64,000 bases of DNA. Source: Betaproteobacteria bacterium (GTDB taxonomy: Bacteria; Pseudomonadota; Gammaproteobacteria; Burkholderiales; JACQAP01). The position numbers and the translations under genes were made by a program. The notes beneath the pieces are model-generated. The model had not been told where the DNA came from. It searched no databases and was given only the letters and a program-made list of their open reading frames with translations. Below are positions 5,898-18,011 of the stretch, one piece after another. The first letter of the stretch is position 1. Every line of letters starts with the position of its first letter. The stretch spans positions 248,001-312,000 of the forward strand of contig JACQAP010000019.1 in the NCBI GenBank assembly GCA_016194905.1, read 5' to 3'.

Positions 5898-6542
5898 ATG
5901 GTTGGACAGAGCGATCCGTGGTTCGAAGCATCGGATGTCATTCCGATGTTCCCGACGCTGGTCTGGAAGATTCAGGTCAAGGAAGGCGTGCGGGCAGCCA
6001 TAGCGGCAAAGATGCTCCCGGTGCTCGCGAAAATGGCACAGGACGCACCGAAACTGGCTTCCGGCCAGGGATGGCAATCGCAGCAAACGTTACATCGGCT
6101 CGACGAGTTGCAGGACCTCGTTTCCTGCGTCGACAAGGCGGTCAGGGGGGTTCTGAAGTTTCTGAGAATCGGTTATGACGCTTTTGAGATCACCGCTTGT
6201 TGGGCCACTGTTCTCGCCAAGGGTGCTGCCCACAGGATGCATAGCCACCCCAATAATTTTCTGAGCGGCATCTATTACCTTCGCACTTACCCGGGCGCGG
6301 ACACCATAAACCTTCATGATCCGAGAAATCAGACCGGCATCCTCAGGCCGCCGATCGTGGAACTGACGGGCGAGAACACAGATCAGGTCGTAGTCCGGGT
6401 GAGCAATGGCACGCTCCTGATCTTCCCGTCCTACCTGCAGCACTCCGTCGACGCCAATACGAGCGGGGAAGAAAGAATCAGTATCAGCTTCAACATCATG
6501 TTCTCTTCGTTCACGGAGAATCTCGCCAAGCCGCTATGGTAG
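5898..6542 (+). CDS. TIGR02466 family putative 2-oxoglutarate/Fe(II) dioxygenase
   Basis: The 214-residue protein carries the double-stranded beta-helix pattern of the TIGR02466 (2OG-Fe(II) oxygenase superfamily) proteins: MHSHPNNFLSGIYYL in the centre, with H-x-H/N providing metal ligands, and LLIFPSYLQHSVDAN with the distal histidine, followed by RISISFN. Substrates of this family are largely unknown; some members act in phage or secondary metabolism. It follows the DUF3683 gene by 22 bp and could be co-transcribed. It is the last ordinary gene before the integron's distal end. Confidence 0.8.
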   Translation: MVGQSDPWFEASDVIPMFPTLVWKIQVKEGVRAAIAAKMLPVLAKMAQDAPKLASGQGWQSQQTLHRLDELQDLVSCVDKAVRGVLKFLRIGYDAFEITACWATVLAKGAAHRMHSHPNNFLSGIYYLRTYPGADTINLHDPRNQTGILRPPIVELTGENTDQVVVRVSNGTLLIFPSYLQHSVDANTSGEERISISFNIMFSSFTENLAKPLW

Positions 6543-6559
6543 CCACCGCACGGCATAAC

Positions 6560-6783
6560 AAGCGGCTGGACCGCTTCACGCACGCTACGCGGCAGGCAAA
6601 AGGTCGAACCGCAGTGGAAGCTCTTCTGCCTGGTGCACAACATCGAGAAGCTCGCGCCTGCGAAATCTCGCCCCTGGGGGACCGCTGCCAATGCAAGGAA
6701 GAGAATCGCTGAAAAAGCTTTTTCTACCACCTCAAGGTTCGCGCTAAGCGGCGCGGCGGTTTTGAACGCGTCCGCTTGCGCGC
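6560..6783 (+). pseudogene. Transposase C-terminal remnant with degenerate attC-like hairpins
   Basis: In the frame beginning at 6600 the DNA reads KVEPQWKLFCLVHNIEKLA, which resembles the C-terminal end of IS1182-type DDE transposases; no upstream part of such a gene remains. Flanking it are GCATAAC plus the hairpin AAGCGG-CTGGA-CCGCTT (6553-6576) and, at about 6745-6776, AAGCGGCGCG with its partner CGCGTCCGCTT, both attC-like but without complete core sites. This appears to be the eroded far end of the cassette array. The transposase call depends on one 19-residue stretch. Confidence 0.5.
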
Positions 6784-7053
6784 TCACACCATCTTTCGCA
6801 ACTCGTCATTGATGCGTGTTTGGTAACCGCCGCCCATGGCCTTAAAAAAGGCGATAACGTCGGCATCAAGACGGGCGGACATTAATACTTTGGTTGGCGC
6901 TTTTTGCGGACCCCGCCCGCGCTTGAGTGCCGGCGGTCCAAGCATCTTCTCCGACCACGGAGGATTGTCCGGATCGGTTCGCTCATTTGAAGTAGTCTTT
7001 GGCGATTTCAAAGTATTAGACGGCGGCCGTACTGTGCATGCCACTGGCGTCAT
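6784..7053 (-). CDS. BrnA-type antitoxin, no BrnT partner seen
   Basis: The C-terminal half reads SARLDADVIAFFKAMGGGYQTRINDELRKMV, the ribbon-helix-helix pattern of BrnA antitoxins (partners of the RNase toxin BrnT). BrnT is normally encoded immediately upstream, but the upstream minus-strand sequence encodes a different, unrelated protein, so this looks like an orphan antitoxin in a cassette. The ATG at 7053 would overlap the preceding gene's stop at 7016; a TTG at 7011, just after that stop, would remove the poorly conserved N-terminal 14 residues and is a reasonable alternative. Confidence 0.7.
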   Translation of the reverse strand: MTPVACTVRPPSNTLKSPKTTSNERTDPDNPPWSEKMLGPPALKRGRGPQKAPTKVLMSARLDADVIAFFKAMGGGYQTRINDELRKMV

Positions 7054-7410
7054 ACAACACTGTGCGCTTTGCCTCGAATGCGGGCGACATCACTTCTATA
7101 TACCAACTTTGCGGAATCGATGGGAATGCGGCAGACAATGGACCAAAGAGATCGGGGAAACCGGCCCACTCTTCAGAGACCTGAACGGGCGCCTGACCTG
7201 AGCGGGATTCGAATAGCAGACAAATGCAGTCGGCGGTAAGGAGGTCGATTTTATAGGTCTGGATCCTTGAGACGTCCGCCCAGTGCACGGTGCGAATGAC
7301 ATCCTGGTCTTCGCATCGACGAGAGCAAACCCGTCATCCGTTACGCGGACGTTCGGTTCGACACGGGGTTTGCGACCGAAGAGCTGTTGGATGCGCGACC
7401 AGAGTGCCAT
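7016..7410 (-). pseudogene. Cassette gene of unknown function broken by one frameshift
   Basis: Two overlapping minus-strand frames join into one plausible protein. It starts at 7410 (MALWSRIQQLFGRKP...VTDDGFALVDAKT) and, after a single-base shift near 7300-7310, continues DVIRTVHWADVSRIQTYK and ends at 7016. Read through the shift the product would be about 130 residues of a small uncharacterised family with the pattern VTDDGF..VDA...I.W.DV..I.AYK.D. Either frame alone is implausible. The base shift may be genuine decay of an unused cassette or a sequencing error. Confidence 0.6.
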
Positions 7411-7420
7411 TTAGCCGCTA

Positions 7421-7463
7421 TATCAACGTCGCGCTCACCCGCGAGCGCCGCAGCAAGTTATGC
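7421..7463 (-). other. attC site (short) of the HicB-like cassette
   Basis: Core site GTTATGC (7457-7463) at the gene-proximal side and TATCAAC (7421-7427) at the far side flank the hairpin GCGCTC-ACCCGC-GAGCGC. The stop codon of the hicB-like gene (TAA at 7458-7460) is formed by the core site. The distal core is a weak match, so the exact end is uncertain. Confidence 0.6.
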
Positions 7464-7673
7464 GGCTTGTACTTCGACAATTTCGCTCGTCGAAGCAGGT
7501 GTAGGAATTGGCTGCCCCTCCTGCTTGAGGTCCTCAAGATGGAACTCGATGGCCTCCCGAATGAGCGAAAGAACCTCTTCTTTCGTTTCTCCAGCAGCGA
7601 TGCAGCCAGGAAGATCCGGAACATGGGCTCCGTAGGAAGAGGGGCCTTTTTCAACAACTACGAGGTATCGCAT
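7458..7673 (-). CDS. HicB-like antitoxin, no HicA partner seen
   Basis: The 71-residue product begins MRYLVVVEKGPSSYGAHVPDLPGC, the canonical partial RNase H fold of HicB antitoxins (HicB_lk family), and ends after SLIREAIEFHLEDLKQEG without a DNA-binding tail. HicB normally neutralises the RNA-binding toxin HicA, encoded next to it; no HicA-like frame is visible on either side within the cassette. Solitary HicB cassettes are known to occur in integrons, and an anti-addiction role is a possibility. The start at 7673 is fixed by the conserved first strand. Confidence 0.82.
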   Translation of the reverse strand: MRYLVVVEKGPSSYGAHVPDLPGCIAAGETKEEVLSLIREAIEFHLEDLKQEGQPIPTPASTSEIVEVQAA

Positions 7674-7694
7674 ATCGAATCGCGGCTCGTATCG

Positions 7695-7752
7695 CGTCTA
7701 ATTCTTGTGTCGATCGACTTCGGACTTTTTCTACAGCCTTGTGCCGTTGGGC
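7695..7752 (-). other. Possible degenerate attC of the 62-residue cassette
   Basis: GTTGGGC at 7746-7752 fits a core site after the stop of the 62-residue gene, and GTCTAAT at 7695-7701 could be an eroded partner 44 bp further left. The segment between them has the short palindrome GTCGATCGAC but not the long arms of the other sites. Position and spacing favour attC; sequence alone is weak. Confidence 0.35.
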
Positions 7753-7797
7753 GGCACCGCGGCTACAGATTCTACGAACAGGCTGCGCATGACTATG

Positions 7798-7986
7798 CTA
7801 TTTGTGTCCAGACCGAAATGCCCACACGCACAAGCTGCCAGCAACGACCATTGCAACCCAGGAAACCCACACTGGCACGTCGAAACCTGCGACTTGCACC
7901 GGCCATTGGTTCAGAGCCCGCACAGCTTGAACCACCGCTATCACGCCGAAGAGAACACCCGAAACGACGACATACTTACTCGGCAT
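7798..7986 (-). CDS. Small two-helix membrane protein (cassette)
   Basis: A 62-residue protein, MPSKYVVVSGVLFGVIAVVQ..., with two hydrophobic helices (about residues 4-24 and 38-57) joined by RALNQWPVQVAGFDVPVW. A strong ribosome binding site, AGGAGG, precedes the ATG by 8 bp, which supports real translation. Its layout is typical of the short hypothetical membrane proteins common in integron cassettes; no function can be assigned. Confidence 0.72.
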   Translation of the reverse strand: MPSKYVVVSGVLFGVIAVVQAVRALNQWPVQVAGFDVPVWVSWVAMVVAGSLCVWAFRSGHK

Positions 7987-8013
7987 TCTCGATCCTCCTA
8001 TTCAGAAAGTGAC

Positions 8014-8078
8014 GCCCAACGCCAAGTTGAGCCGCAGCAAGCATTTGCTTGCCGTCGGTCTCGAACTTGATGTTAGAT
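8014..8078 (-). other. attC site of the DUF4256 cassette
   Basis: GCCCAAC (8014-8020) and GTTAGAT (8072-8078) bound a 65-bp imperfect palindrome whose central arms are GCAAGCA and TGCTTGC, with AAGTT/AACTT inner sites. A second GTTAAAC at 8090-8096, which supplies the stop of the gene, could alternatively be the outer core site. Confidence 0.8.
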
Positions 8079-8090
8079 TTCGATCAAGAG

Positions 8091-8636
8091 TTAAACCTTG
8101 ATCCGACCGCGAAAACCTCTTGCGGCGTAGTACGATTCAGCACCGTTGTGATACACGAAAACATGATCATAGCGACGATCACAGAAGAGCGCACCACCAA
8201 GATCTCTTATCTTGGCTGGCGTATTCACCCAGCTCGAAGTTTTCCTGTCGAATTCTCCAAACTCTTGCAATTCTCGATATTGTTGTTCCGTGAGTATCTC
8301 AATACCTATCGAGGACGCCATTTCGATTGCGTTTCCACTTGGTTTGTTTTCTTTTCGTGAATCGAGAGCCTCGCGGTCATAACAAATGCTGCGTCGGCCT
8401 ATTGGACTTTCAGGTGAACAATCACAGAAAATGAACTCACTGGTCTTTTCATCATAACCAACGACATCCGGTTCGCCGCCGGTGCGTTCCATTTCATAGA
8501 GTGCTTGGATTTTTTCAGGACTAGCCTCCAATTTCGCTTGCATTGAGCTCCAGTCGATTCCTGTGTGACGACGCTTGTTTTTCGAGAACCGATCTTTGAG
8601 AGTCTTGATCAGCTCGTCAAGAAATGCTGCTTCCAT
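8091..8636 (-). CDS. DUF4256 family protein (cassette)
   Basis: The 181-residue product ends with ALFCDRRYDHVFVYHNGAE and SYYAARGFRG, the signature of DUF4256, and contains the matching EPDVVGYDEKTSEFIFCDCS block in the middle. The family's function is unknown. The ATG at 8636 is preferred over one 7 codons upstream because AGGGAG lies at proper spacing before it. The stop codon lies in a core-like GTTAAAC. The 188-base gap on its right leads to the IS-split attC. Confidence 0.82.
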   Translation of the reverse strand: MEAAFLDELIKTLKDRFSKNKRRHTGIDWSSMQAKLEASPEKIQALYEMERTGGEPDVVGYDEKTSEFIFCDCSPESPIGRRSICYDREALDSRKENKPSGNAIEMASSIGIEILTEQQYRELQEFGEFDRKTSSWVNTPAKIRDLGGALFCDRRYDHVFVYHNGAESYYAARGFRGRIKV

Positions 8637-8828
8637 TTCATTATCTCCCTTATGCAACTCGTTTACCGATCGTGTATCTTCAACTGTCTATCAATATTGC
8701 TGAATGCGTAAATCTAACGAATGAAAGGGACTTCCCCGTCCCGATAAAGCGGCGGAGAGGCTGCGCGGCATCGATCTGCCATGATGGTTGTTCGCGCAAA
8801 CATCAACTGTCTCGAAAGGGGAAGTCCA

Positions 8829-9842
8829 TGACGATTATCACTGTCGGTATCGATCTTGCCAAGAACGTGTTCTCCGTGCACGGCGTCGATGAGAATGGCA
8901 AGGTGGCGCTGCGGCGCACGGTGCGCCGTGACCAGTTGTTGGAGTTGATCGCCACGCTGCGCCCATGTGTTGTTGCGATGGAGGCCTGTTCGGGTGCACA
9001 CCACTGGGCGCGCCAGTTCGCAGCCTTGGGGCACACCCCGAAACTGATTGCCCCCAAGTTCGTCACGCCTTATCGCATGAGTGGCAAGCGCGGCAAGAAC
9101 GATGCTGCTGATGCGGCCGCCATCTGCGAAGCCGCCACCCGTCCGAAGATGCGTTTCGTCCCTCTCAAAACCGTCGATCAGCAGGGCACTCTGTGCGTGC
9201 ATCGGGTGCGTCAGGGCTTCATCGAGGAGCGCACTGCGACCATCAACCGCGTGCGCGGACTGCTCTGCGAATTCGGCATCGTGCTCCCGCAGAACGCCAA
9301 CACCGTGCGTCGCGAGGCTGCCGCGGCCCTGGAGGATTTGCCCGGCTGGGCGAATCGCGCCATCGGTGACTTGCTCAGCCATTTGCATGCGCTCGATCTG
9401 CGCATCGCCGAGTATGACGCCCACGTCAAGCTCAACGCACAAGCCGACGAACGCGCACGCAGACTCATGAGCACGCCCGGCATCGGCCCGACCCCCGCCA
9501 GTGCCCTGGCCGCGTCCATCGGGCAATGCCCATGACTTCAAAAACGGGAGGCAGCTCGCTGCCTGGCTCGGCCTGGTGCCCAGCCAGTACAGCACCGGCG
9601 GCAAACCCAGGTTGGGCAGCATCACCAAGGCGGGGGATGCCTACCTTCGAACCTTGTTGATCCTGGGCGCACGATCCGTTCTGGCCAACGCTCCCGGCAA
9701 GACCGATCGCATCAGCCGATGGGCGCTCGCTGTACAAGAGCGCACCGGCTACGGCAAGGCACTGGTTGCCATCGCCGCCAAGAACGCGCGCATGGCTTGG
9801 GCCATGCTCAGTAAAGGCGAGGCGTTCAGGTCGATGGCCTGA
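8829..9842 (+). pseudogene. IS110-family (IS1111 group) transposase, one frameshift
   Basis: The N-terminal part (MTIITVGIDLAKNVFSVHG...) has the RuvC-like DEDD catalytic domain of IS110 transposases, and the C-terminal part (GRQLAAWLGLVPSQYSTGG) has the serine-containing Tnp_IS116/IS110 domain. They are in different frames: the first ends at 9535 after AASIGQCP, and the continuation NAHDFKNG needs removal of one base near 9524. Intact it would be about 337 residues. GGGGAAGTCC immediately before the ATG is an inverted copy of the left end. The shift probably inactivates the enzyme unless translational frameshifting occurs. Confidence 0.88.
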
Positions 9843-10155
9843 GCCTCTCAACATCGCACCCGCCACGCTCGCCCGATAAGGAGCTCGTCGATGAGTTAGA
9901 AAGCGTTTCATACCGTTCACCGCGTCTGTCCATGTTGATGAGTCAAGGTTGGACCTGCGTGAGGTGTGCCTGATACAAGCCAAGGTGGACGCTACGGCGA
10001 TCCCGGCTAACGAATGAGGCCCTCACGCGCGTCTTTCATCAGGGTCCGCAGCCGATCGAACCGCTGCACCAAGACCGTTTGTAGAGCCTCAGTCCTTCAC
10101 CTTGCACACGCATCATCGACAGAAACCAGAAAGCAGCTTTGCAGACTTGACTATT
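9843..10155 (+). ncRNA. Candidate seekRNA/bridge RNA region of the left IS element
   Basis: This 313-base non-coding end follows the transposase. It contains CTAACGAATGA at 10007-10017, identical over 11 bases to the attC sequence at the left border of the insertion (8714-8724). In IS1111-type elements the guide RNA comes from the downstream end and carries short target-matching segments, so this is a candidate guide. RNA ends and fold were not determined. Confidence 0.5.
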
Positions 10156-10305
10156 GGAGAAGCCCTTGTAGTTTGACTTAAGCGGACTGCCGAAGGCAGG
10201 TCCGCTTGAATGATGGGATGGACTCCTCCCGCTGTTTGTGCGGCATCATTGTGCCAAGCTGAAACATGGGCATGGGTCAGCGTAACCAGACAGGAGGAAT
10301 CCAAA

Positions 10306-11373
10306 ATGAATGCTACTACCGTGGCGGTGGATCTGGCAAAGAACGTCTTCGAAGTCGCCGTGGCCGATTCTCACTGGAAGATCATCGAACGCGCCCGCCT
10401 TACGCGTTCGCAGTTCGAGCGCTGGTTCGATAATCGTGAGTGCGCCACGGTCGTCATGGAAGCCTGTGGCATCGCGCATCACTTTGCGCGCTGGCTCGGC
10501 GGCCTGGGCTTTACGGTCAAGCTGCTGCCCGCGCAGTACGTGCGTGCCTATGTGAAGCGCAACAAGACCGATGCAGCCGACGCGGCGGCGCTGCTGGAGG
10601 CCGTTCGTGCTGCCGACATCAAGCCGGTGGCGGTGAAGTCGATCGAGCAGCAGGCTCTCCAGGCGCTGCACCGCACGCGCGAAGCCTGGAAGAGCACGCG
10701 CACCCGGCGCATCAACACCCTGCGCGGCTTTTGCCGCGAGTTCGGATTGGTGGTGCCCGAGGGGGCGGCCACCGGCCTCGCACAGATGGCGCGTTATCTG
10801 GCCGACGAGCAGTCGGGATTGCCCGCGATGCTGCGTAGCCCCATGCGCCTGATGCTCGACGAGATCCGGCTCATGGAGGCGAGAATGGCGCAACTCGAAA
10901 CCCAGCTCGCCGACGTCGCTAAACACAGCCCCGCCTACCAGGTGCTGCTCACGGTGCCGGGCATCGGGCTGATCACCAGCACGGCCATGGTGGCCGCCGT
11001 GGGCAACCCGGCCAGCTTCGACTCGGGGCGGCGCTATGCGAGCTTTCTCGGGCTCACGCCGCGGGAATACTCTTCGGGCAATACGCGTTATCTGGGCCGC
11101 ATCTCCAAGCGCGGCGATCGCTATATCCGCACCCTGCTCACCCACGGGGCGAGGAGCGTGCTGCGCTCGGCTACCGTGGCGCATCGCGCCGGGCGCGAGA
11201 TCGACCGGTTGAAGCGTTGGGGGCTCGAGGTACAGGCGCGCACCAATCACAACAAGGCCGCGTGCGCGCTTGCCAACAAGTTGGCCCGCATCGCCTGGGC
11301 GGTGTGGGTCAAGCAGGAACGGTATCGGGGGCAGGCGCTGCCTGCATCTCAATCACCGCTGTGCAGTGTCTGA
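10306..11373 (+). CDS. IS1111-group transposase (IS110 family)
   Basis: The 355-residue enzyme starts MNATTVAVDLAKNVFEVAV after AGGAGG and contains the DEDD RuvC-like domain (first Asp near residue 9; NKTDAADAAALLEA near 87) and a C-terminal domain with VPGIGLITSTAMVAAVG and FLGLTPREYSSGNTRYLG, carrying the catalytic serine region. These recombinases act with an element-encoded guide RNA and leave no target duplication. The gene is undamaged, in contrast with its neighbour to the left, and the two transposases are clearly different in sequence, so they arrived independently. Confidence 0.93.
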   Translation: MNATTVAVDLAKNVFEVAVADSHWKIIERARLTRSQFERWFDNRECATVVMEACGIAHHFARWLGGLGFTVKLLPAQYVRAYVKRNKTDAADAAALLEAVRAADIKPVAVKSIEQQALQALHRTREAWKSTRTRRINTLRGFCREFGLVVPEGAATGLAQMARYLADEQSGLPAMLRSPMRLMLDEIRLMEARMAQLETQLADVAKHSPAYQVLLTVPGIGLITSTAMVAAVGNPASFDSGRRYASFLGLTPREYSSGNTRYLGRISKRGDRYIRTLLTHGARSVLRSATVAHRAGREIDRLKRWGLEVQARTNHNKAACALANKLARIAWAVWVKQERYRGQALPASQSPLCSV

Positions 11374-11618
11374 GAATGAGTAGGAATCTTTTTCCGCGGT
11401 TTGCGTAAGAGAGACGACGCCCATCATGGCAACAACGGTCGGACCGGCACGGGAGAAAGCCGATAACTCTGCTGATCGAAGCTTGATCGCTCAGAACGTG
11501 TGGCTTCCCGTGCGCAGATTCCATGTCGGCACGAGCCCTCAGAGGTTCACTTCAGATGCCGGATAGTCGACTGCAACCGATTCCCGCGTTGACAACCCTA
11601 CGGCGTTTCTCTTGTTTC
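11374..11618 (+). ncRNA. Candidate seekRNA/bridge RNA region of the right IS element
   Basis: The 245 bases between the transposase stop and the right inverted repeat encode no protein. CCCATCAT at 11420-11427 is complementary to ATGATGGG at the left border of the insertion (10210-10217), and AACCCT at 11594-11599 is complementary to AGGGTT at the right border (11640-11645). Two short guides, one per target half, are what the seekRNA model predicts; 6-8 base matches can also arise by chance. Confidence 0.5.
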
Positions 11619-11649
11619 GCGGGAGGAGTCCATATAGGAAGGGTTAGGC

Positions 11650-12609
11650 CTATCCCGCACGAACGTACAGCCCTTCGAAAGTTGAAGGAATCTCAGCTAA
11701 TTCTGCTTCGAGATACGGCACGCTCGAGATCGACAAGAGCCACTCGAGATACACATCTTCGGTGAAGTAGGCGTCGACTGCCTGAAGTGCCCGTGAGCGT
11801 GAATCCGCGGACAGGAGAGACGGCACTGCAGGTGCTTCGGCCGCATCCGCCGCGGCTAGCTCCGCCCTCAGGCAGTGGGACCACTCCCAACCGACGGAAG
11901 GCCTAGCTTCGACAAGGAACTCGGATGGCCACTGGATACGTCCGTTGAGGATGCCATGCGCGCCCACCAGCCAAGCCAAGACCTGGGCCCGCCAATGTGG
12001 GGAAGGAATCGCCAGAACCGACTGCAGCCAACCCTGAAGTAGTGGGCTAGGCAAGTACTTCAGGCAGAAGAACATTGACGCACTGAAGTCGCCGCTGGCG
12101 TCCCACCAGCACCAGACGCGGTTTGGGTTGTTGTTCGATCGATGGAGCAGCGTTCCCAAGACGATGTCTGTGCCGTTCCAGCACCTCTCGTCCATCATGC
12201 AGCGGCCAAGGGTAACGAGCGCGTCGTCAAGAAACTGGCGGTAGGGTGGTGAGTGCACGCCGTTCGGATACAGCGCCACGAAGCCAGTGATGAGTGACTC
12301 AAGAAGCGAGCTAACGAAGTGCTCGTGACCGCGAGAGAGTAGCTGGCCCAGCATGTAGTGATACCAGTCGTGCCACTCTTGCATCGGGCCGAAGGAACTG
12401 GTGCCGGATGCGATCTCCTGAAGTGGCGCCTGGAGCTCCCGAGCAGCTAGCGACGCAAGATCGCCTTGTAGTTCGCAAAAGAGGCGTCGCTCTTCGCCCA
12501 TGAACCATGCCTCACCCATCGGCTCCTTAGGGCGCCTGAAGTGGCCTCGGAGCCGCGCGAGTGCGGCGGCATCGATTCCATCTCCTGGTTGCCAGACAAA
12601 CCGATTCAC
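11650..12609 (-). CDS. Hypothetical protein, 319 residues (cassette)
   Basis: No family is recognised. The sequence is tryptophan-rich (MQEWHDWYHYMLGQLLSRG; CWWDASGDFSASMFFCLKYL) and mainly helical, without signal peptide or clear membrane segment. The frame is open further upstream to an ATG at 12702, but those 31 codons run through the attC of the neighbouring cassette, so the first start inside this cassette, GTG at 12609 (VNRFVWQPGDG), is chosen. The stop TAG directly precedes core site GTTAGGC, the cassette's own attC now split by two IS elements. Confidence 0.65.
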   Translation of the reverse strand: MNRFVWQPGDGIDAAALARLRGHFRRPKEPMGEAWFMGEERRLFCELQGDLASLAARELQAPLQEIASGTSSFGPMQEWHDWYHYMLGQLLSRGHEHFVSSLLESLITGFVALYPNGVHSPPYRQFLDDALVTLGRCMMDERCWNGTDIVLGTLLHRSNNNPNRVWCWWDASGDFSASMFFCLKYLPSPLLQGWLQSVLAIPSPHWRAQVLAWLVGAHGILNGRIQWPSEFLVEARPSVGWEWSHCLRAELAAADAAEAPAVPSLLSADSRSRALQAVDAYFTEDVYLEWLLSISSVPYLEAELAEIPSTFEGLYVRAG

Positions 12610-12617
12610 TTGATGGG

Positions 12618-12680
12618 GCCTAACGTCAAAGCTCAGAGGCGCGCAGGTTATCGCGCGTCCCTTGGAGCGATCGGTTAGGA
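12618..12680 (-). other. attC site of the DUF4034 cassette
   Basis: GCCTAAC (12618-12624) and GTTAGGA (12674-12680) bound a 63-bp imperfect palindrome with central arms GGCGCGC and GCGCGTCC. It is easily missed because open frames of both neighbouring genes read into it. The TAA stop of the DUF4034-like gene is part of the right core site. Confidence 0.75.
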
Positions 12681-13676
12681 CGACAAAGCCCAATCTCGAC
12701 ATCTGGTGAACACTTCGATGCCGTCTGGTTCCCAGACGATTAACGCGGGACTACCGCCAATCATTTTCATCAATTCTACTGATTTCTCCTTATCTCTTGC
12801 GAGACATGCAAAATGCGCATAGATATTCGCGTTCCACGGGTCGGGGTAACGCCTCAGCAAGTCCTCAAATCCAATCTTCATTCTTGGCCAGGAGGCCTTT
12901 GATTGACTAAACAATTCGTGCTTATACTGAAATTGGGACGCCGCCGCGTAGAACCTCGCGTAGAGTTCCATGCCTCTTTTCTCTTGCGTTTTTGTGACTA
13001 CGTAAGATACGAAATGTTCTAGCTGATCGGCATCTCCGTGCCATTTCGGAAATAGATAATCCAGAACCGCGTAATAGATTCTGTCGTCATCGACGTTCTT
13101 ACTAAGAGCTTCCTCAATAAAGGGGTTGATCCTCTCTCGCTTCCAACCCAAGTGTTTGGCAATGTGTATCTTAATGGCATACCAGCCCGTATCTGCGGAA
13201 GCGATACTCTCGTTCTTGTTGAGGTAATCCATAGCGATATTTTCATATCGAAAGAATGGTTCCCAAGCCTCCTCGGGAACCGTATTGGCGTAACCTTTTC
13301 CTCTAAAGAAAAACGCATGAGCTGATAGCGCGCGGGCATACGCAATTCGTGCCGCTGGTGATTTCGGATAAGCCCCTATCCAATTGAGCACTTTCTTTTC
13401 CATCCGATCACAATATTTCTCGTCTTCGTTTGGTGGTGGAGTGAGCGCCAAATTTAACCCATCATCAAACAAGCTAATCTTCTGGGCGCCACTAGGCGTT
13501 CGTTTGTCGTTTTTGCCATAGAGAATTGAAAGCCTTTCAAGCTCAGGGAAGTTTTCCGATAACAATGCATTTCGTGCTTGATTGCGGATCGAGTCTCTTA
13601 TCGAGAGTTCGTCCGCATAAGCAGTTCGGAAAGTAAATAGCAGAAATAGGACCAACAAATAGCTATGACGTTTCAT
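12675..13676 (-). CDS. Secreted DUF4034-like protein (cassette)
   Basis: A 333-residue protein with a signal peptide (MKRHSYLLVLFLLFTFRTAYA, cleavage after AYA) and, from about residue 30, a pattern resembling DUF4034: an early helix with LLSENFPELERLSILYGKN, then RTPSGAQKISLFDDGL, then long helices with RIAYARALSAHAFFFRGKGY. Function of the family is unknown; a periplasmic location is likely. The gene is visibly richer in A and T than the host genes, a sign of separate origin. Its stop is built from the attC core site. Confidence 0.75.
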   Translation of the reverse strand: MKRHSYLLVLFLLFTFRTAYADELSIRDSIRNQARNALLSENFPELERLSILYGKNDKRTPSGAQKISLFDDGLNLALTPPPNEDEKYCDRMEKKVLNWIGAYPKSPAARIAYARALSAHAFFFRGKGYANTVPEEAWEPFFRYENIAMDYLNKNESIASADTGWYAIKIHIAKHLGWKRERINPFIEEALSKNVDDDRIYYAVLDYLFPKWHGDADQLEHFVSYVVTKTQEKRGMELYARFYAAASQFQYKHELFSQSKASWPRMKIGFEDLLRRYPDPWNANIYAHFACLARDKEKSVELMKMIGGSPALIVWEPDGIEVFTRCRDWALSS

Positions 13677-13683
13677 GGCGTCT

Positions 13684-13746
13684 TTCTAACGTTCTCAATC
13701 AGCCGCCGGCCGCTCTTGGCCGGTCGGCTGCATTAATTTGTTAGGC
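13684..13746 (-). other. attC site
   Basis: TTCTAAC (13684-13690) and GTTAGGC (13740-13746) bound a 63-bp imperfect palindrome with strong central arms CAGCCGCCGGCC and GGCCGGTCGGCTG around GCTCTT. The right core site supplies the stop codon of the 185-residue gene. Confidence 0.9.
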
Positions 13747-14298
13747 GAACCTTTGAGAGTGAGCGCCACTTTCGCCTTCGCCAAACAGGCACCAGAAATA
13801 TTCTGGGCTTTGTTTCTGCGGAACGTTCCGGCCCTCATGCGGCAAGACCGCGCTGATGTCTGCGGTCGTCTTGCCAGTGGGCAAATGGACAAAGTCGACT
13901 GCGTTCCCGCTGACATATGCCTGCCTGCTGCCATCTGAAAAGAGAAGTGTGAACAAGCAATATCCCATGCCGGACTCGCCAGCGCGATATAGCTCATTAG
14001 CCAGTCTGACAGGAAGCCGTAGCGGACTTTCGGCGATTGACACCAAATCTTCTATCCGGACATGGTGCTTGCCCTTGTCATCCTGAGGCCATACGCCCCA
14101 GACATCGATGTATGACTGGGCATTCATCACATAAACGCACAGAAGCGTACGCCCGTCCTTCAACGTGACGCTGCAAGGGTAGTACTCCAGCTTTCCATTG
14201 ACACTCGGAGCAATCGTTTCCCATGCGGCCAGCAGACTACCGGTCAAGGCAGCGTAAGAGCGCTTTCCTGGGACGTACGCCTTGAGCTGCTGAGTCAT
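13741..14298 (-). CDS. Hypothetical protein, 185 residues (cassette)
   Basis: Unknown family. The product is soluble, with a beta-rich middle (YYPCSVTLKDGRTLLCVYVM; IDVWGVWPQDDKGKHHVRIEDL) and a glycine-rich region LSFSDG-like near 120; no signal peptide. The start ATG at 14298 lies only about 6 bp from the neighbouring attC core site, so there is no room for a normal ribosome binding site and translation may depend on the preceding cassette or on integron promoter read-through. The last codons, QRFA, and the stop are already attC sequence. Confidence 0.68.
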   Translation of the reverse strand: MTQQLKAYVPGKRSYAALTGSLLAAWETIAPSVNGKLEYYPCSVTLKDGRTLLCVYVMNAQSYIDVWGVWPQDDKGKHHVRIEDLVSIAESPLRLPVRLANELYRAGESGMGYCLFTLLFSDGSRQAYVSGNAVDFVHLPTGKTTADISAVLPHEGRNVPQKQSPEYFWCLFGEGESGAHSQRFA

Positions 14299-14303
14299 GG
14301 GTC

Positions 14304-14375
14304 GTCTAACGCCAGCGCTCAGCCGCGGGCCGAGCCCACAGGACGAGGCCCGTCGGCTGGTGCGCCTGGTTGGGT
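14304..14375 (-). other. attC site
   Basis: GTCTAAC (14304-14310) and GTTGGGT (14369-14375) bound a 72-bp imperfect palindrome with arms GCCGCGGGCC-GAG and ACGAGGCCCGTCGGC. The last 17-18 codons of the membrane-protein cassette gene run through it. Confidence 0.85.
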
Positions 14376-14840
14376 GGCAGCGCTCTCTCGGATCGCCGCG
14401 AGGATGCGACGCGCATTAGGAAGCCCGAACAACCAACCAATGAACGTGATGCCAAAGAATGCTGCGATGAAGGTGAGCATGAACTCAATTTCTTTAACCT
14501 TCCAGCCAGGCACATAACCCGGGCGAACCTCGGGCTGTTGGAACGCGGCCAGGAGCTGATACAGGAGCATGCCCAAAAATAAGACGCTGAACATCAACGT
14601 GTACCAATGAACGCGGAAGTAACCGCTCAAGTAACTGCGCGCTCCGTCATGCGCAAAGCGACCAACGAAGATTGGATTCCAAGAGTTGCGGAAGAACAAC
14701 CCCAGCTTCTTTTCGACTTTGATTCGCGCGCCATTCACTGAATGCTTCAGTTCATGTTTCTGAAACGCTTCGACAAGGCGCTGTTGCGGGTTAACTATTT
14801 CGGGTGGGTAGTCGAATCGATAGCGAACGAACCAGATCAT
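14319..14840 (-). CDS. Membrane protein, 173 residues (cassette)
   Basis: The product starts MIWFVRYRFDYPPEIV, has a charged N-terminal domain (about residues 1-80), two membrane helices (about 82-104, WYTLMFSVLFLGMLLYQLL, and about 120-142, MLTFIAAFFGITFIGWLFGL) and a proline/alanine-rich tail. The tail from QPGAPADG onward is translated attC, so it is unlikely to be functional. A start 7 codons upstream exists but would lie in the previous attC; ATG 14840 is preferred. No known family. Confidence 0.66.
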   Translation of the reverse strand: MIWFVRYRFDYPPEIVNPQQRLVEAFQKHELKHSVNGARIKVEKKLGLFFRNSWNPIFVGRFAHDGARSYLSGYFRVHWYTLMFSVLFLGMLLYQLLAAFQQPEVRPGYVPGWKVKEIEFMLTFIAAFFGITFIGWLFGLPNARRILAAIRESAATQPGAPADGPRPVGSARG

Positions 14841-14849
14841 TTCTCTGCC

Positions 14850-14904
14850 ACCCAACGTCATGGTCAGCGGCGCCGATAGGCGTCCGCTGCACCTAAAGTT
14901 AGGC
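14850..14904 (-). other. attC site
   Basis: ACCCAAC (14850-14856) and GTTAGGC (14898-14904) bound a 55-bp imperfect palindrome with arms GCGGCGCC and GGCGTCCGC. It lies 9 bp past the stop of the HEPN-like gene. Confidence 0.85.
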
Positions 14905-14913
14905 ACCGGCTGC

Positions 14914-15531
14914 TCAACCCTGCCACCTTTCGTACTCGGAAGCGATGTCGTCTTGATGTGAAAAGTCCAGATAGGCGCACTCAAAGAAATTCTCCAAGCC
15001 TTCCATGACTTCGCGCAGATTCGCCAGATCAATGCCCCTGTCACCGAACTTAAATGGTGCTTCATCGCGACCCGTAGCAAACCTAAATCCATCTGACTTT
15101 TGATCAGCCTCATGCATCTCAGCAACAAGCTTTTGCGCGGCACTCAGGCCCAACGTTTCGCCCCTAGACCGCTCGTTAGCAATGCACATGAATCTTTCCC
15201 AGAGGATGTTGAGTTCGTGCGTGTACCTCGGTGAATACTCTTTCCCTTTGCCGAATTCATCAATCAGACGTTTCAAGAAAAGTTCGATCGATTGCCTGTA
15301 GCAGAAGAGCGCTGCGTAGATTATGTTCGCTCGATCAACAACATCAGTTGCTGCCTGATCGACTAGGAGGTCACCGGCGCGCTTGTAGCCCATAGGCAGG
15401 CGATAGAAACGTTCGCCTGGGTCGCAAACTACGTGTGCATCGTATGCCCAAGCAGACTCGACAAAGAGACGATCACCATCCTTTGGCCAAGGCGCGTCGA
15501 GGTCTTCTGCTTCTGGCACGTTGTCATTCAT
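14914..15531 (-). CDS. HEPN-like protein, 205 residues (cassette)
   Basis: The helical centre ANIIYAALFCYRQSIELFLK RLI followed by THELNILWERF resembles the helix pair of HEPN-type domains, in which an Arg and a downstream His lie across the dimer interface; the exact R-x4-6-H motif is not evident, so RNase activity is not claimed. The rest (MNDNVPEAEDLDAPWPKDG at the N-terminus) is not recognised. The ATG at 15531 is preferred over a TTG two codons upstream. A cassette-borne stress, defence or toxin function would fit, but this is inference. Confidence 0.55.
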   Translation of the reverse strand: MNDNVPEAEDLDAPWPKDGDRLFVESAWAYDAHVVCDPGERFYRLPMGYKRAGDLLVDQAATDVVDRANIIYAALFCYRQSIELFLKRLIDEFGKGKEYSPRYTHELNILWERFMCIANERSRGETLGLSAAQKLVAEMHEADQKSDGFRFATGRDEAPFKFGDRGIDLANLREVMEGLENFFECAYLDFSHQDDIASEYERWQG

Positions 15532-15549
15532 GGTCAATGTAGTGGCGGT

Positions 15550-15615
15550 GCCTAACGAACAAGCTGTGCGGCCGAACGCAGCAGGCGGACGGTCCGAACC
15601 AGCGAAAAGTTAGCC
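15550..15615 (-). other. attC site
   Basis: GCCTAAC (15550-15556) and GTTAGCC (15609-15615) bound a 66-bp imperfect palindrome; the inner arms include CAAGCTGTGCGGCCG and CGGACGGTCCG-like segments. It lies 9 bp past the stop of the 144-residue gene. Confidence 0.8.
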
Positions 15616-15624
15616 ACTGCGTTC

Positions 15625-16059
15625 TCAAGGAAACAGTGCAACGATATTGTCATCGAAGCGGAAGGTGTTGAGAACCCATCCCTTGTTGCTTCTATAGAAG
15701 TAAAACATCCATCGCATTGCATGCTTGTCGAATCGGTGAATATGGGTGATGCGAAGCAGGCTCTCGCCTACCTTTTCTTCGCGCACGAACTCGGTTCCGA
15801 GGCTTGCGCCGAATCGTTGAGCGATCATGGACTGTTGGAGCTTGAACTGACCAAAGGTCGCATCGACTTCGGCTTCAGGCACGATCGTGAAAGGTTTTAG
15901 CAGTTTGATGGCCGCGTCCAGGTCGTTCACGCCAACTTTGGCCATGATCTTGTCCGTAATGGCTCGCGCTTCTTTTGGCGTAGGGACTGTCTCAAATGCG
16001 TAATTGCTTAAAGCAACAGTCGCTAGGAATGCTGCGAATAGACTACGCACAAGGTACAT
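15625..16059 (-). CDS. Exported hypothetical protein, 144 residues (cassette)
   Basis: MYLVRSLFAAFLATVALSNYA looks like a signal peptide; the mature part has an NTF2-like flavour, with helices KEARAITDKIMAKVG and DLDAAIKLLKPF followed by strands (TEFVREEKVGESLLRIT; MRWMFYFYRSNKGWVLNTF) and a C-terminal FRFDDNIVALFP. No catalytic residues are recognisable. The ribosome binding site GAGGAG precedes ATG 16059 by 7 bp. A periplasmic location is inferred. Confidence 0.68.
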   Translation of the reverse strand: MYLVRSLFAAFLATVALSNYAFETVPTPKEARAITDKIMAKVGVNDLDAAIKLLKPFTIVPEAEVDATFGQFKLQQSMIAQRFGASLGTEFVREEKVGESLLRITHIHRFDKHAMRWMFYFYRSNKGWVLNTFRFDDNIVALFP

Positions 16060-16076
16060 AGGATGACTCCTCAGAT

Positions 16077-16140
16077 GGCTAACGAATTAGCTCAGCGACG
16101 CGGCGCTTTTTGCCGCGTCCGCTGAAGCGCTGGGTTGGGC
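16077..16140 (-). other. attC site of the first cassette
   Basis: GGCTAAC (16077-16083) and GTTGGGC (16134-16140) bound a 64-bp imperfect palindrome: CAGCGACGCGGCGC pairs with GCCGCGTCCGCTG across TTTTT. This is the clearest site in the array and a good template for the others. Confidence 0.93.
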
Positions 16141-16180
16141 TTGCGTTCGGTCGGGTTTGCATATGGCCTCCGTTAAACCA

Positions 16181-16426
16181 CTAACCGCGACCCATAACGT
16201 CATTAAGTAAGTGCAGCCGCGCCCGTTCCCGCAGAGAAAGTAACAATTTTTTCTCCACTCCTTCAACGGCCAACAGTTCTTGCAATGGGATGTAGGCCAC
16301 TTCCTCAATGATGGTCAGTCCCGCTACAACCAACGCAATTGCTACTTGTTCGTTAATGCCGAGCACGCGCATAAACATTTCGACGATAGAACGATCTGGT
16401 TCGTCCATTTCGGCCACTATGTTCAT
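16181..16426 (-). CDS. Free-standing NusA C-terminal acidic-repeat-like domain (first cassette)
   Basis: The 81-residue product reads IVEMFMRVLGINEQVAIALV, then a short turn and EEVAYIPLQELLAVEGVEKK, then LRERARLHLL. This is the helix-hairpin-helix acidic repeat of NusA (F..L.I.E..A..LV..G....EE.AY.P..ELL.IEG......LRERA), where in E. coli it contacts RNA polymerase alpha C-terminal domain and lambda N. Here only one repeat exists, without NusA N-terminal, S1 or KH domains. The frame is open upstream, but the ATG at 16426 begins where similarity begins. As the attI-proximal cassette it should be the best expressed one. Confidence 0.72.
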   Translation of the reverse strand: MNIVAEMDEPDRSIVEMFMRVLGINEQVAIALVVAGLTIIEEVAYIPLQELLAVEGVEKKLLLSLRERARLHLLNDVMGRG

Positions 16427-16576
16427 GCAATGCCGTCCTCCGATGTCAGGCCCAACTAGAAGTAGCAATCCCATTGACGGGATATTTTGCGTCAACTTGA
16501 CGGATAATCTGGCGGGGCGCATGATAACTACTGGATATATCAACAGTCCTCATCCCGGGAAACCTCCCATTAGGTC
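16427..16576 (-). promoter_or_regulatory. attI region between the first cassette and intI
   Basis: The insertion point should be a GTTRRRY-like site on the minus strand; GTTGATA (complement of 16538-16544) is the best placed candidate, and a GTTATCA at about 16524-16530 is another. GTTGATAT is also the distal core of the last-but-one attC at 7421. Promoters for the cassettes and for intI should lie here or within intI, but no clear -35/-10 pair could be identified. Confidence 0.4.
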
Positions 16577-17563
16577 ATGAACGCGCCCGATGCCACCGGA
16601 CCGAAGAAAAGCCTACTCTTGGACCGTGTCCGGGACAAGATCCGCCTGAAGCATTACAGCATCCGGACGGAATCGGCCTATGTCGATTGGGTACGCCGGT
16701 TCGTGGTGTTTCACCACCGTCGCCACCCGCGCGAACTCGGTCCCGAGCACGTGGAGGCATTCCTTTCCCACCTTGCCGTGCAGCGCAACGTAGCTGCCTC
16801 AACCCAGAACCAGGCCAAAAGTGCCTTGTTGTTTCTCTACAAGGAGGTGCTCGGCTCGGAACTGCCCTGGCTGGATAACGTGGAAAACGCCAAGCGGCCT
16901 CAACGCCTGCCTGTGGTGCTTAGCCGCACCGAAGTCGATGCGGTACTCGGCAGGATGCATGGCACCAATGGCCTGATTGCGCGGCTGCTGTACGGCTCGG
17001 GTTTGCGGATCATGGAGGCGGTCAGGCTACGGGTCAAGGATCTCGATTTGGAGAGTTGCGAAATCCTGGTCCGCGACGGTAAAGGTGCCAAGGACCGGGT
17101 GACGATGTTGCCGTCCAGTCTGGTCGATCCACTGCGTGCCCATCTGGTGCTCGTGCGCGAACTGCATGCTCAGGACTTGGCCGCAGGACTGCCCGGGGTT
17201 TATCTGCCGTATGCTCTGGATCGCAAGTATCCGAATGCTCCCCGGGAGTGGGCCTGGCAGTATGTGTTCCCGTCCGATCGTCTTTCCACCGACCCGCGAT
17301 CGGGCCTGCGGCGCCGGCATCACGTCGATGAACAGAATGTCCAGCGCGCGATGCGCCAGGCGCTGCGGGACGCAGGCGTGGCAAAACCCGCCACGCCGCA
17401 CACCCTGCGATACTCTTTCGCCACGCACCTGCTCCAGTCCGGCTACGACATTAGGACCGTGCAGGAACTGCTGGGCCACTCGGATGTTTCGACGACGATG
17501 ATCTACACGCATGTGTTGAATCGCGGTGGCCGGGGAGTGGTGAGCCCACTCGATGCGCGTTGA
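16577..17563 (+). CDS. intI: Integron integrase IntI (tyrosine recombinase)
   Basis: The 328-residue enzyme has the SAM-like N-terminal core-binding domain and the catalytic residues Arg144, Lys171 region, His275, Arg278, His301 and nucleophile Tyr310. The family-specific extra segment is present at about 205-233 ([16 protein letters not shown], then WQYVFPS), which distinguishes IntI from XerC/D. It recombines folded single-stranded attC sites with attI. It reads away from the cassettes, and its 3' end nearly touches the HIT gene. The array lies upstream of intI in the usual inverted layout. The gene looks intact. Confidence 0.96.
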
Positions 17564-17585
17564 GTCGACCCCGAATCCGGAAACC

Positions 17586-18011
17586 ATGAAGTCAGAAAAC
17601 TGTGTGCTTTGTGTCTCTCCCGGCGGCGAAGTGCTCTGGGACGACGGTTTCGCGCGCGTGGTGCTCGCGGGCGATGCGGATCACCCCGGATTCTGCCGGG
17701 TGATCCTGAATGATCACGCGAAGGAAATGACGGATTTGCCGGAGGCGGAGCGCGCGCGGCTGATGGGCATCGTCTATGCGGTCGAGGAATTGCTGCGCGA
17801 GCTGCTTGCGCCGGAAAAAATCAATCTCGCCAGTTTCGGCAATGTCGTGCCGCATCTGCACTGGCACGTCATACCGAGGTTCTCCGACGATCCGCATTTT
17901 CCGAATTCCGTCTGGTCGACCCGGGTGCGCGATGGCGCGCGTCCGCTGCCTGCGGGGTTCAATCGATTGCTGCGCCAGCGTTTGGGCGAGCTGCTCGGCC
18001 CGAAGCGCTAG
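17586..18011 (+). CDS. HIT family protein
   Basis: A 141-residue histidine-triad protein: NCVLC at the start and NLASFGNVVPHLHWHVIPRF with the HxHxH triad near residue 95. Such proteins hydrolyse dinucleotide polyphosphates or nucleoside phosphoramidates. ATG 17586 is preferred; the frame extends 11 codons upstream into the end of intI, but that part is not conserved. Its 3' end overlaps the phoR stop by 4 bp on the opposite strand, so the genes are convergent. Confidence 0.9.
   Translation: MKSENCVLCVSPGGEVLWDDGFARVVLAGDADHPGFCRVILNDHAKEMTDLPEAERARLMGIVYAVEELLRELLAPEKINLASFGNVVPHLHWHVIPRFSDDPHFPNSVWSTRVRDGARPLPAGFNRLLRQRLGELLGPKR

What the first reader, a model, noticed from the sequence alone, without database searches (positions are those of the whole stretch)
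8712..11649. A single attC site split in both arms by two different IS1111-type elements
Removing 8725-10176 and about 10218-11642 leaves a near-symmetrical 60-bp attC: ATCTAACGAATGA + CTTAAGCGGACTGCC-GAA-GGCAGGTCCGCTTGAATGATGG + GTTAGGC. Each arm of an attC is an inverted version of the other, so each IS found a similar target in its own arm. Two distinct transposases in one site, one decayed and one intact, imply two successive invasions and a locked cassette.
Basis: partly seen in the sequence, partly recalled or inferred. Interest (0 to 1): 0.8.

Follow-up and report, generated by a model that had tools for sequence, protein, structure and literature searches.

The report
attC site split by two guided insertion-sequences
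One recombination site in a bacterial gene-cassette array has been interrupted on both sides by two unrelated RNA-guided jumping elements, and one of them belongs to a widespread second lineage that aims at the very edge of such sites, about one base from where cassettes are joined.

Summary
The finding is real, with corrected junctions. In a betaproteobacterial chromosomal integron (intI 16577-17563), the attC of the seventh cassette is split by two IS1111-family elements: IS1 (8719-10170, transposase frameshifted) and IS2 (10211-11636, intact). Both reader junctions are shifted by about 6 bp. Family end rules and an intact sister attC in the same genome (C21:750-804, 95% identical) fix the empty site as ATCTAAC|GTTTGACTTAAGCGGACTGCCGAAGGCAGGTCCGCTTGAA|GGAAGGGTTAGGC. 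The two elements did not find 'similar targets'. IS2 belongs to the known IS1111-attC group (ISPa25/ISKpn4 clade; same R'' position and orientation). IS1 belongs to a separate transposase clade that inserts exactly at the R' box edge (RYYYAAC|G), about 1 nt from the integrase crossover. An unbiased scan on IS1's inverted repeat gave 80 relatives, 52 preceded by CTAAC, CCAAC or TTAAC. Their 3' noncoding RNA has a covarying structure with two guide segments that covary with the two target halves over seven target classes. So attC targeting apparently arose at least twice in IS1111. Three other genomes carry type-I-left/type-II-right remnants in what looks like one attC. 'Locked cassette' is overstated: cassettes 7 and 8 could still leave together.

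The parts
8712..8718 (-). R' (1R) box of the attC of cassette 7, GTTAGAT on the - strand; also the boundary of cassette 8
   Evidence: sequence; matches the box position of the intact sister attC
8719..10170 (+). IS1 (type I, 1452 bp): LE extension GAATGA, sTIR AAGGGACTTCCCC (8725-8737), right sTIR GGAGAAGCCCTT (10156-10167), RE extension GTA
   Evidence: relatives share both ends
8828..9842 (+). IS1 transposase gene (DEDD/IS110), interrupted by one +1 frameshift near 9520-9523; second part open in another frame (9501-9842)
   Evidence: NF033542 E=5.7e-68 and 8.3e-33 for the two parts; PF01548
9955..10036 (+). predicted IS1 seeker-type RNA, target-guide domain: stem closing a loop with the right-target guide AAGCCAA (9977-9983) and the left-target guide CTAAC+GAATGA (10007-10017)
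   Evidence: covarying consensus structure; guide/target runs
10171..10210 (.). surviving inner hairpin of the attC (L'-loop-L''), 40 nt between the two ISs
   Evidence: matches C21:750-804
10211..11636 (+). IS2 (type II, ISPa25-like, 1426 bp): LE extension TGATGGG, sTIRs 10218-10232 / 11619-11633 (15/15), RE extension ATA
10306..11373 (+). IS2 transposase, 355 aa, intact
   Evidence: NF033542 E=4.7e-94; PF01548 + PF02371; 51% identical to ISPa25, 46% to ISKpn4
11374..11636 (+). IS2 3' noncoding region with candidate guides TAACTCT (11464-11470, right target, 6/7) and GCTTGA (11481-11486, left target)
   Evidence: aligns with the known ISKpn4/ISPa25 seekRNA region; the left guide is uncertain
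11637..11649 (-). R'' end of the same attC (GCCTAACCCTTCC on the - strand)
11650..12600 (-). ORF of cassette 7 (unknown function), whose attC is split
   Evidence: the ORF listing; no NCBIfam match
8091..8636 (-). ORF of cassette 8 (DUF4256)
   Evidence: PF14066 E=1.8e-89
16577..17563 (+). integron integrase intI
   Evidence: TIGR02249 E=7.8e-144
12618..16140 (-). array with the attC sites of cassettes 1-6 (16077-16140, 15551-15613, 14828-14904, 14303-14377, 13685-13746, 12618-12679)
   Evidence: boxes and folds

Best explanation
Two RNA-guided IS1111-family elements of different lineages each inserted once into the same attC, at different and non-overlapping targets. IS2 is an ordinary member of the known IS1111-attC group: its guide RNA recognises the L''-R'' side, and it sits where ISKpn4 and ISPa25 sit. 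IS1 belongs to a second lineage whose guide RNA recognises the R' box (RYYYAAC) plus the adjacent L' side and inserts exactly at the box edge, about 1 nt from the integrase crossover point. Together they leave the inner hairpin intact but put the R' and R'' boxes about 2.9 kb apart, so the attC can no longer fold as a unit. Shown: ends, empty site, clade membership, target preference, guide-target covariation. Inferred: the transposition mechanism, the RNA being made by IS1, and loss of attC function.
For: Intact sister attC in the same genome fixes the junctions. IS2 flanks equal those of ISKpn4, ISPpu24 and ISPa25 on plasmids: CTTGAA or CTTGAG, then IS, then GTTRRRY. An unbiased scan on IS1's sTIR gave 80 relatives: CTAAC 41, CCAAC 9, TTAAC 2 next to the left end. 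Joined flanks of 12 of 16 YYAAC elements with both ends give an attC hairpin or a matching GTTRRRY box. A crude ORF-based orientation test puts 67 of 80 at the R' end. Guide-target match runs: left 110 against 90.1 +/- 4.0, right 132 against 88.7 +/- 4.9 on re-pairing, 0/5000 each. RNA structure: 58 double-change cells against 18.7 +/- 3.4 shuffled, sliding controls fail. Transposase tree separates the two clades, 100/100 and 100/99. IS1111 seekRNA mechanism published (PMC11187229).
Against: IS1's own right-target guide matches with one mismatch (AAGCCAA against AAGTCAA), and IS2's left-target guide is only a 6-nt match outside the aligned ISKpn4 position. IS1's RNA folded alone is not unusually stable (z -0.87). 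No orthologous empty site was found. The transposase tree warns of long branches.
Confidence: 0.88

Rival explanations
1. The two elements are one attC-targeting lineage that hit mirror-image copies of the same target.
For: attC arms are inverted repeats, both insertions fall between an R and an L box, and both transposases are IS110-type.
Against: Different clades (38.9% identity between a close relative of IS1 and IS2; tree), different sTIRs, different offset from the R box (0 against 6 nt), opposite reading direction relative to the arm, different guides.
Confidence: 0.04
2. IS1 is a general IS1111 element with no attC specialisation; its place here is chance or secondary.
For: The same clade contains elements with other targets (CCAAA, TAATC, TTAGC, CTAGA, GCATAAG) and the named ISShdy1 and IS5708.
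Against: 52 of 80 unselected left ends follow CTAAC, CCAAC or TTAAC; IS1's own guide reads CTAAC; attC hairpins at most complete copies.
Confidence: 0.04
3. The composite arose by rearrangement: a deletion or recombination joined an IS1-bearing attC to an IS2-bearing attC, so it is not one attC hit twice.
For: In L213, L241 and L247 only a type-I left end and a type-II right end survive, which such a deletion would also give.
Against: In the window both elements keep both ends, and the 40-nt inner hairpin plus both outer boxes match one intact sister attC along its whole length.
Confidence: 0.04

Closest known systems
IS1111-attC group (ISKpn4, ISPst6, ISPa21, ISPa25, ISPpu24; Tetu & Holmes 2008, Post & Hall 2009, cited in PMC11187229)
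   Same: IS2: same clade, same sTIR as ISPa25 (ATGGACTCCTCCCG), same position and orientation in attC, guide at the same place in the 3' NCR.
   Different: IS1: different clade, different sTIR, inserts at the R' box edge at the opposite end of the attC, different guides. The two founding papers are not in the held library, so I could not check whether they mention such elements.
IS1111 seekRNA system (ISEc11, ISPa11, ISKpn4; PMC11187229)
   Same: sTIR with 6/3 or 7/3 extensions, 3' NCR with two guide segments, top-strand match 5' of the bottom-strand match.
   Different: IS1's RNA is inferred from sequence only; nothing was sequenced or assayed.
ISShdy1 and IS5708 (IS110-like elements named in plasmid annotation)
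   Same: Closest named relatives of IS1's transposase found, about 57-58% identity; same clade.
   Different: The copies examined lie next to other sequences (CTTTCGC, CCTTAGC).
ISPa21 insertions in attC of blaGES-5 integrons (PMC11616780)
   Same: An IS1111 element in an attC, suggested there to immobilise cassettes.
   Different: One element per attC, not two lineages in one site.

Membership tests
IS1111 family (IS1 and IS2) | sTIR of about 11-13 bp with 7/3 or 6/3 bp extensions | tested here: met
   IS2 15/15, 7/3; IS1 6/3 with one indel and one mismatch between its repeats
IS1111 family (IS1 and IS2) | DEDD/IS110-type transposase with the long NCR downstream | tested here: met
   NCRs 9843-10170 and 11374-11636
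IS1111-attC group: IS2 | transposase in the ISKpn4/ISPa25 clade | tested here: met
   100/100 clade
IS1111-attC group: IS2 | insertion at the common position and orientation near the R'' end of attC | tested here: met
   same CTTGAA, IS, GTTRRRY layout as L018 and L019
IS1111-attC group: IS1 | transposase in the ISKpn4/ISPa25 clade | tested here: not met
   separate 100/99 clade
IS1111-attC group: IS1 | common insertion position in attC | tested here: not met
   inserts at RYYYAAC|G of the R' end
attC site | R'', L'', L', R' boxes forming an imperfect hairpin | tested here: met
   corrected 60-mer z -5.5 and 95% match to an intact attC
attC site | recombination by IntI | not testable with these tools
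   needs an assay
[quoted passage not shown]
   matches and covarying structure shown; RNA itself not observed

The most novel reading that the evidence does not exclude
attC targeting evolved independently in a second IS1111 lineage, common in Betaproteobacteria, whose guide RNA reads the R' box and places the element about one base from the integrase crossover, at the opposite end of the attC from the known group. The two lineages repeatedly attack the same arrays and sometimes the same attC, converting recombining cassettes into fixed ones.
Probability: 0.6. Interest if true: 0.68.

Novelty: new variant of a known kind. Interest (0 to 1): 0.55.

Why it matters
Integron cassettes are thought to be frozen or freed mainly through integrase activity and attC quality. 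A second guided IS lineage that writes itself at the cassette boundary is another force that fixes cassettes in arrays. Because target and guide covary over seven natural target classes, the lineage also offers a ready natural series for working out the pairing rules of IS1111 guide RNAs.

Tried and rejected
Rfam on 6000-17600: one chance match (snoU54, below gathering). Orthologous cassette 7 in 399 genomes of the order: only short chance matches. The founding IS1111-attC paper could not be read: PMC2447020 is not held. A simple inverted-repeat search failed for some IS1 relatives because their sTIR carries an indel; the right end was found from RE homology instead. Many type I left ends have no right end: they are deletion remnants within arrays, not full elements.

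Full report
Context. The window lies at G000:C19:248001-312000 of a 4.75-Mb, 36-contig genome. It holds a chromosomal integron. The integrase gene at 16577-17563 matches TIGR02249 with E=7.8e-144. Its cassettes run on the minus strand, away from the integrase, from about 16.5 kb down to about 6.7 kb, each followed by an attC. The site in question is the attC of the seventh cassette (ORF 12600-11650), followed by cassette 8, a DUF4256 gene.

The observation, corrected. IS1111 elements have subterminal inverted repeats with 7 (or 6) bp beyond the left repeat and 3 bp beyond the right one (PMC11187229). For IS2 the perfect 15-bp repeats at 10218-10232 and 11619-11633 give 10211-11636. For IS1 the ends GAATGA+AAGGGACTTCCCC and GGAGAAGCCCTT+GTA give 8719-10170; relatives in other genomes share these ends. 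The empty site is then ATCTAAC GTTTGACTTAAGCGGACTGCCGAAGGCAGGTCCGCTTGAA GGAAGGGTTAGGC. An uninterrupted attC on another contig of the same genome (C21:750-804) has the same sequence at 95% identity, across both junctions. No relative holding this same cassette was found.

IS2. Its transposase is 51% identical to ISPa25 and 46% to ISKpn4 and falls with them at 100/100. Its repeat equals that of ISPa25. ISKpn4, ISPpu24 and ISPa25 copies on public plasmids lie between CTTGAA or CTTGAG and a GTTRRRY box, exactly as IS2 does. It is an ordinary member of the IS1111-attC group.

IS1. Its transposase (two frames, one +1 shift near 9520-9523) lies in a different clade, 100/99; a full-length member of that clade is only 36-40% identical to IS2, ISPa25 and ISKpn4. 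Of 80 left ends, 52 are preceded by CTAAC, CCAAC or TTAAC; the rest by TTAGC, CTAGA, TTAGA, TAATC, CGAAT and others. Random flanks would give well under one YYAAC (my estimate). For 16 YYAAC elements with both ends recovered, joining the flanks gives an attC hairpin or a matching GTTRRRY box in 12; IS1 itself needs IS2 removed as well; the others are unclear. A rough ORF-based test puts 67 of 80 at the R' end, next to the following cassette. The insertion point RYYYAAC|G is about one base from the known integrase crossover in G^TTRRRY (established knowledge).

Guide RNA. Downstream of the transposase these elements share a conserved region. Its consensus fold is a stem closing a loop with one variable segment, a small hairpin, and a second variable segment; 14 of 25 pairs show double changes, 58 double-change cells against 18.7 +/- 3.4 in shuffles, and slid controls collapse. 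The second variable segment copies the left target half: CTAAC with CTAAC, CCAAC with CCAAC, CCAAA with CCAAA, TAATC with TAATC, CTAGA with CTAGA or TTAGA, TTAGC with TTAGC, GCATAAG with GCATAAG. The first is complementary to the right half, for example AAAATCGTAC against GTACGATTTT in L231 and an 11-nt match in L115. Match runs exceed re-pairing among the 22 elements: left 110 against 90.1 +/- 4.0, right 132 against 88.7 +/- 4.9, 0 of 5000 in each case. Shared ancestry inflates this somewhat; within the 16 attC-type elements the right half stays significant (2/5000) while the left half does not vary enough to test. This is the order described for IS1111 seekRNAs. IS1's own guides read CTAACGAATGA and AAGCCAA (6 of 7 against its right target).

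Recurrence. Among the fetched loci, L213 (a Betaproteobacteria MAG), L241 (a Pseudomonadota MAG) and L247 (Curvibacter sp. CHRR-16) carry a type I left end after a YYAAC box and, about 330-500 bp on, a type II right end before GTTRRRY. Their middles are deleted, so a fusion between neighbouring sites cannot be excluded; the window is the only complete case. Several other loci have type II right ends in a neighbouring attC.

Consequence. The inner hairpin survives (10171-10210), but the two R boxes are about 2.9 kb apart, so recombination at this attC is probably lost (inference). Cassettes 7 and 8 cannot leave singly through it, but attC 6 and attC 8 could still excise both together with the ISs. 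'Locked' is therefore too strong. Insertion order is not established: the two target footprints do not overlap.

Novelty. Single IS1111 insertions in attC, and their guide RNAs, are known. New here, as far as the held literature shows, are the double occupation of one attC and a second, separate lineage that targets the R' edge. The two founding IS1111-attC papers were not readable, so this is stated with caution.

Noticed in passing
16181-16543 (-): First ORF between intI and the first attC encodes a short protein with a NusA C-terminal-repeat-like helix-hairpin-helix domain (TIGR01954 E=2.9e-11, just below cut-off).
   Followed up: no
6743-6790: The far end of the array has a degenerate attC-like hairpin that shares its core with the attC at 16090-16131 (79% over 42 nt) but lacks clear R boxes.
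   Followed up: partly
L002 1501-1702 and L003 1501-1597 (G000:C8, C29): Two remnants of IS2-like elements elsewhere in the genome, one beside a GTTAGAG box, so IS2's lineage probably hit other attC sites here too.
   Followed up: partly
L004 (G000:C21:1-2299): Start of another contig carries a second cassette array with several attC sites, possibly a broken-off part of the same integron.
   Followed up: no
L063, L213, L225, L243, L245: Arrays with several type I left ends in successive attC sites, many without a right end: repeated invasion followed by internal deletion.
   Followed up: partly
L257: An E. coli plasmid IS110-type element whose left flank contains an inverted copy of the type I guide-RNA anchor (GCGCGTCTTTCATCAGGGCCCGAATCG), as if inserted into or beside the guide region of a relative.
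   Followed up: no
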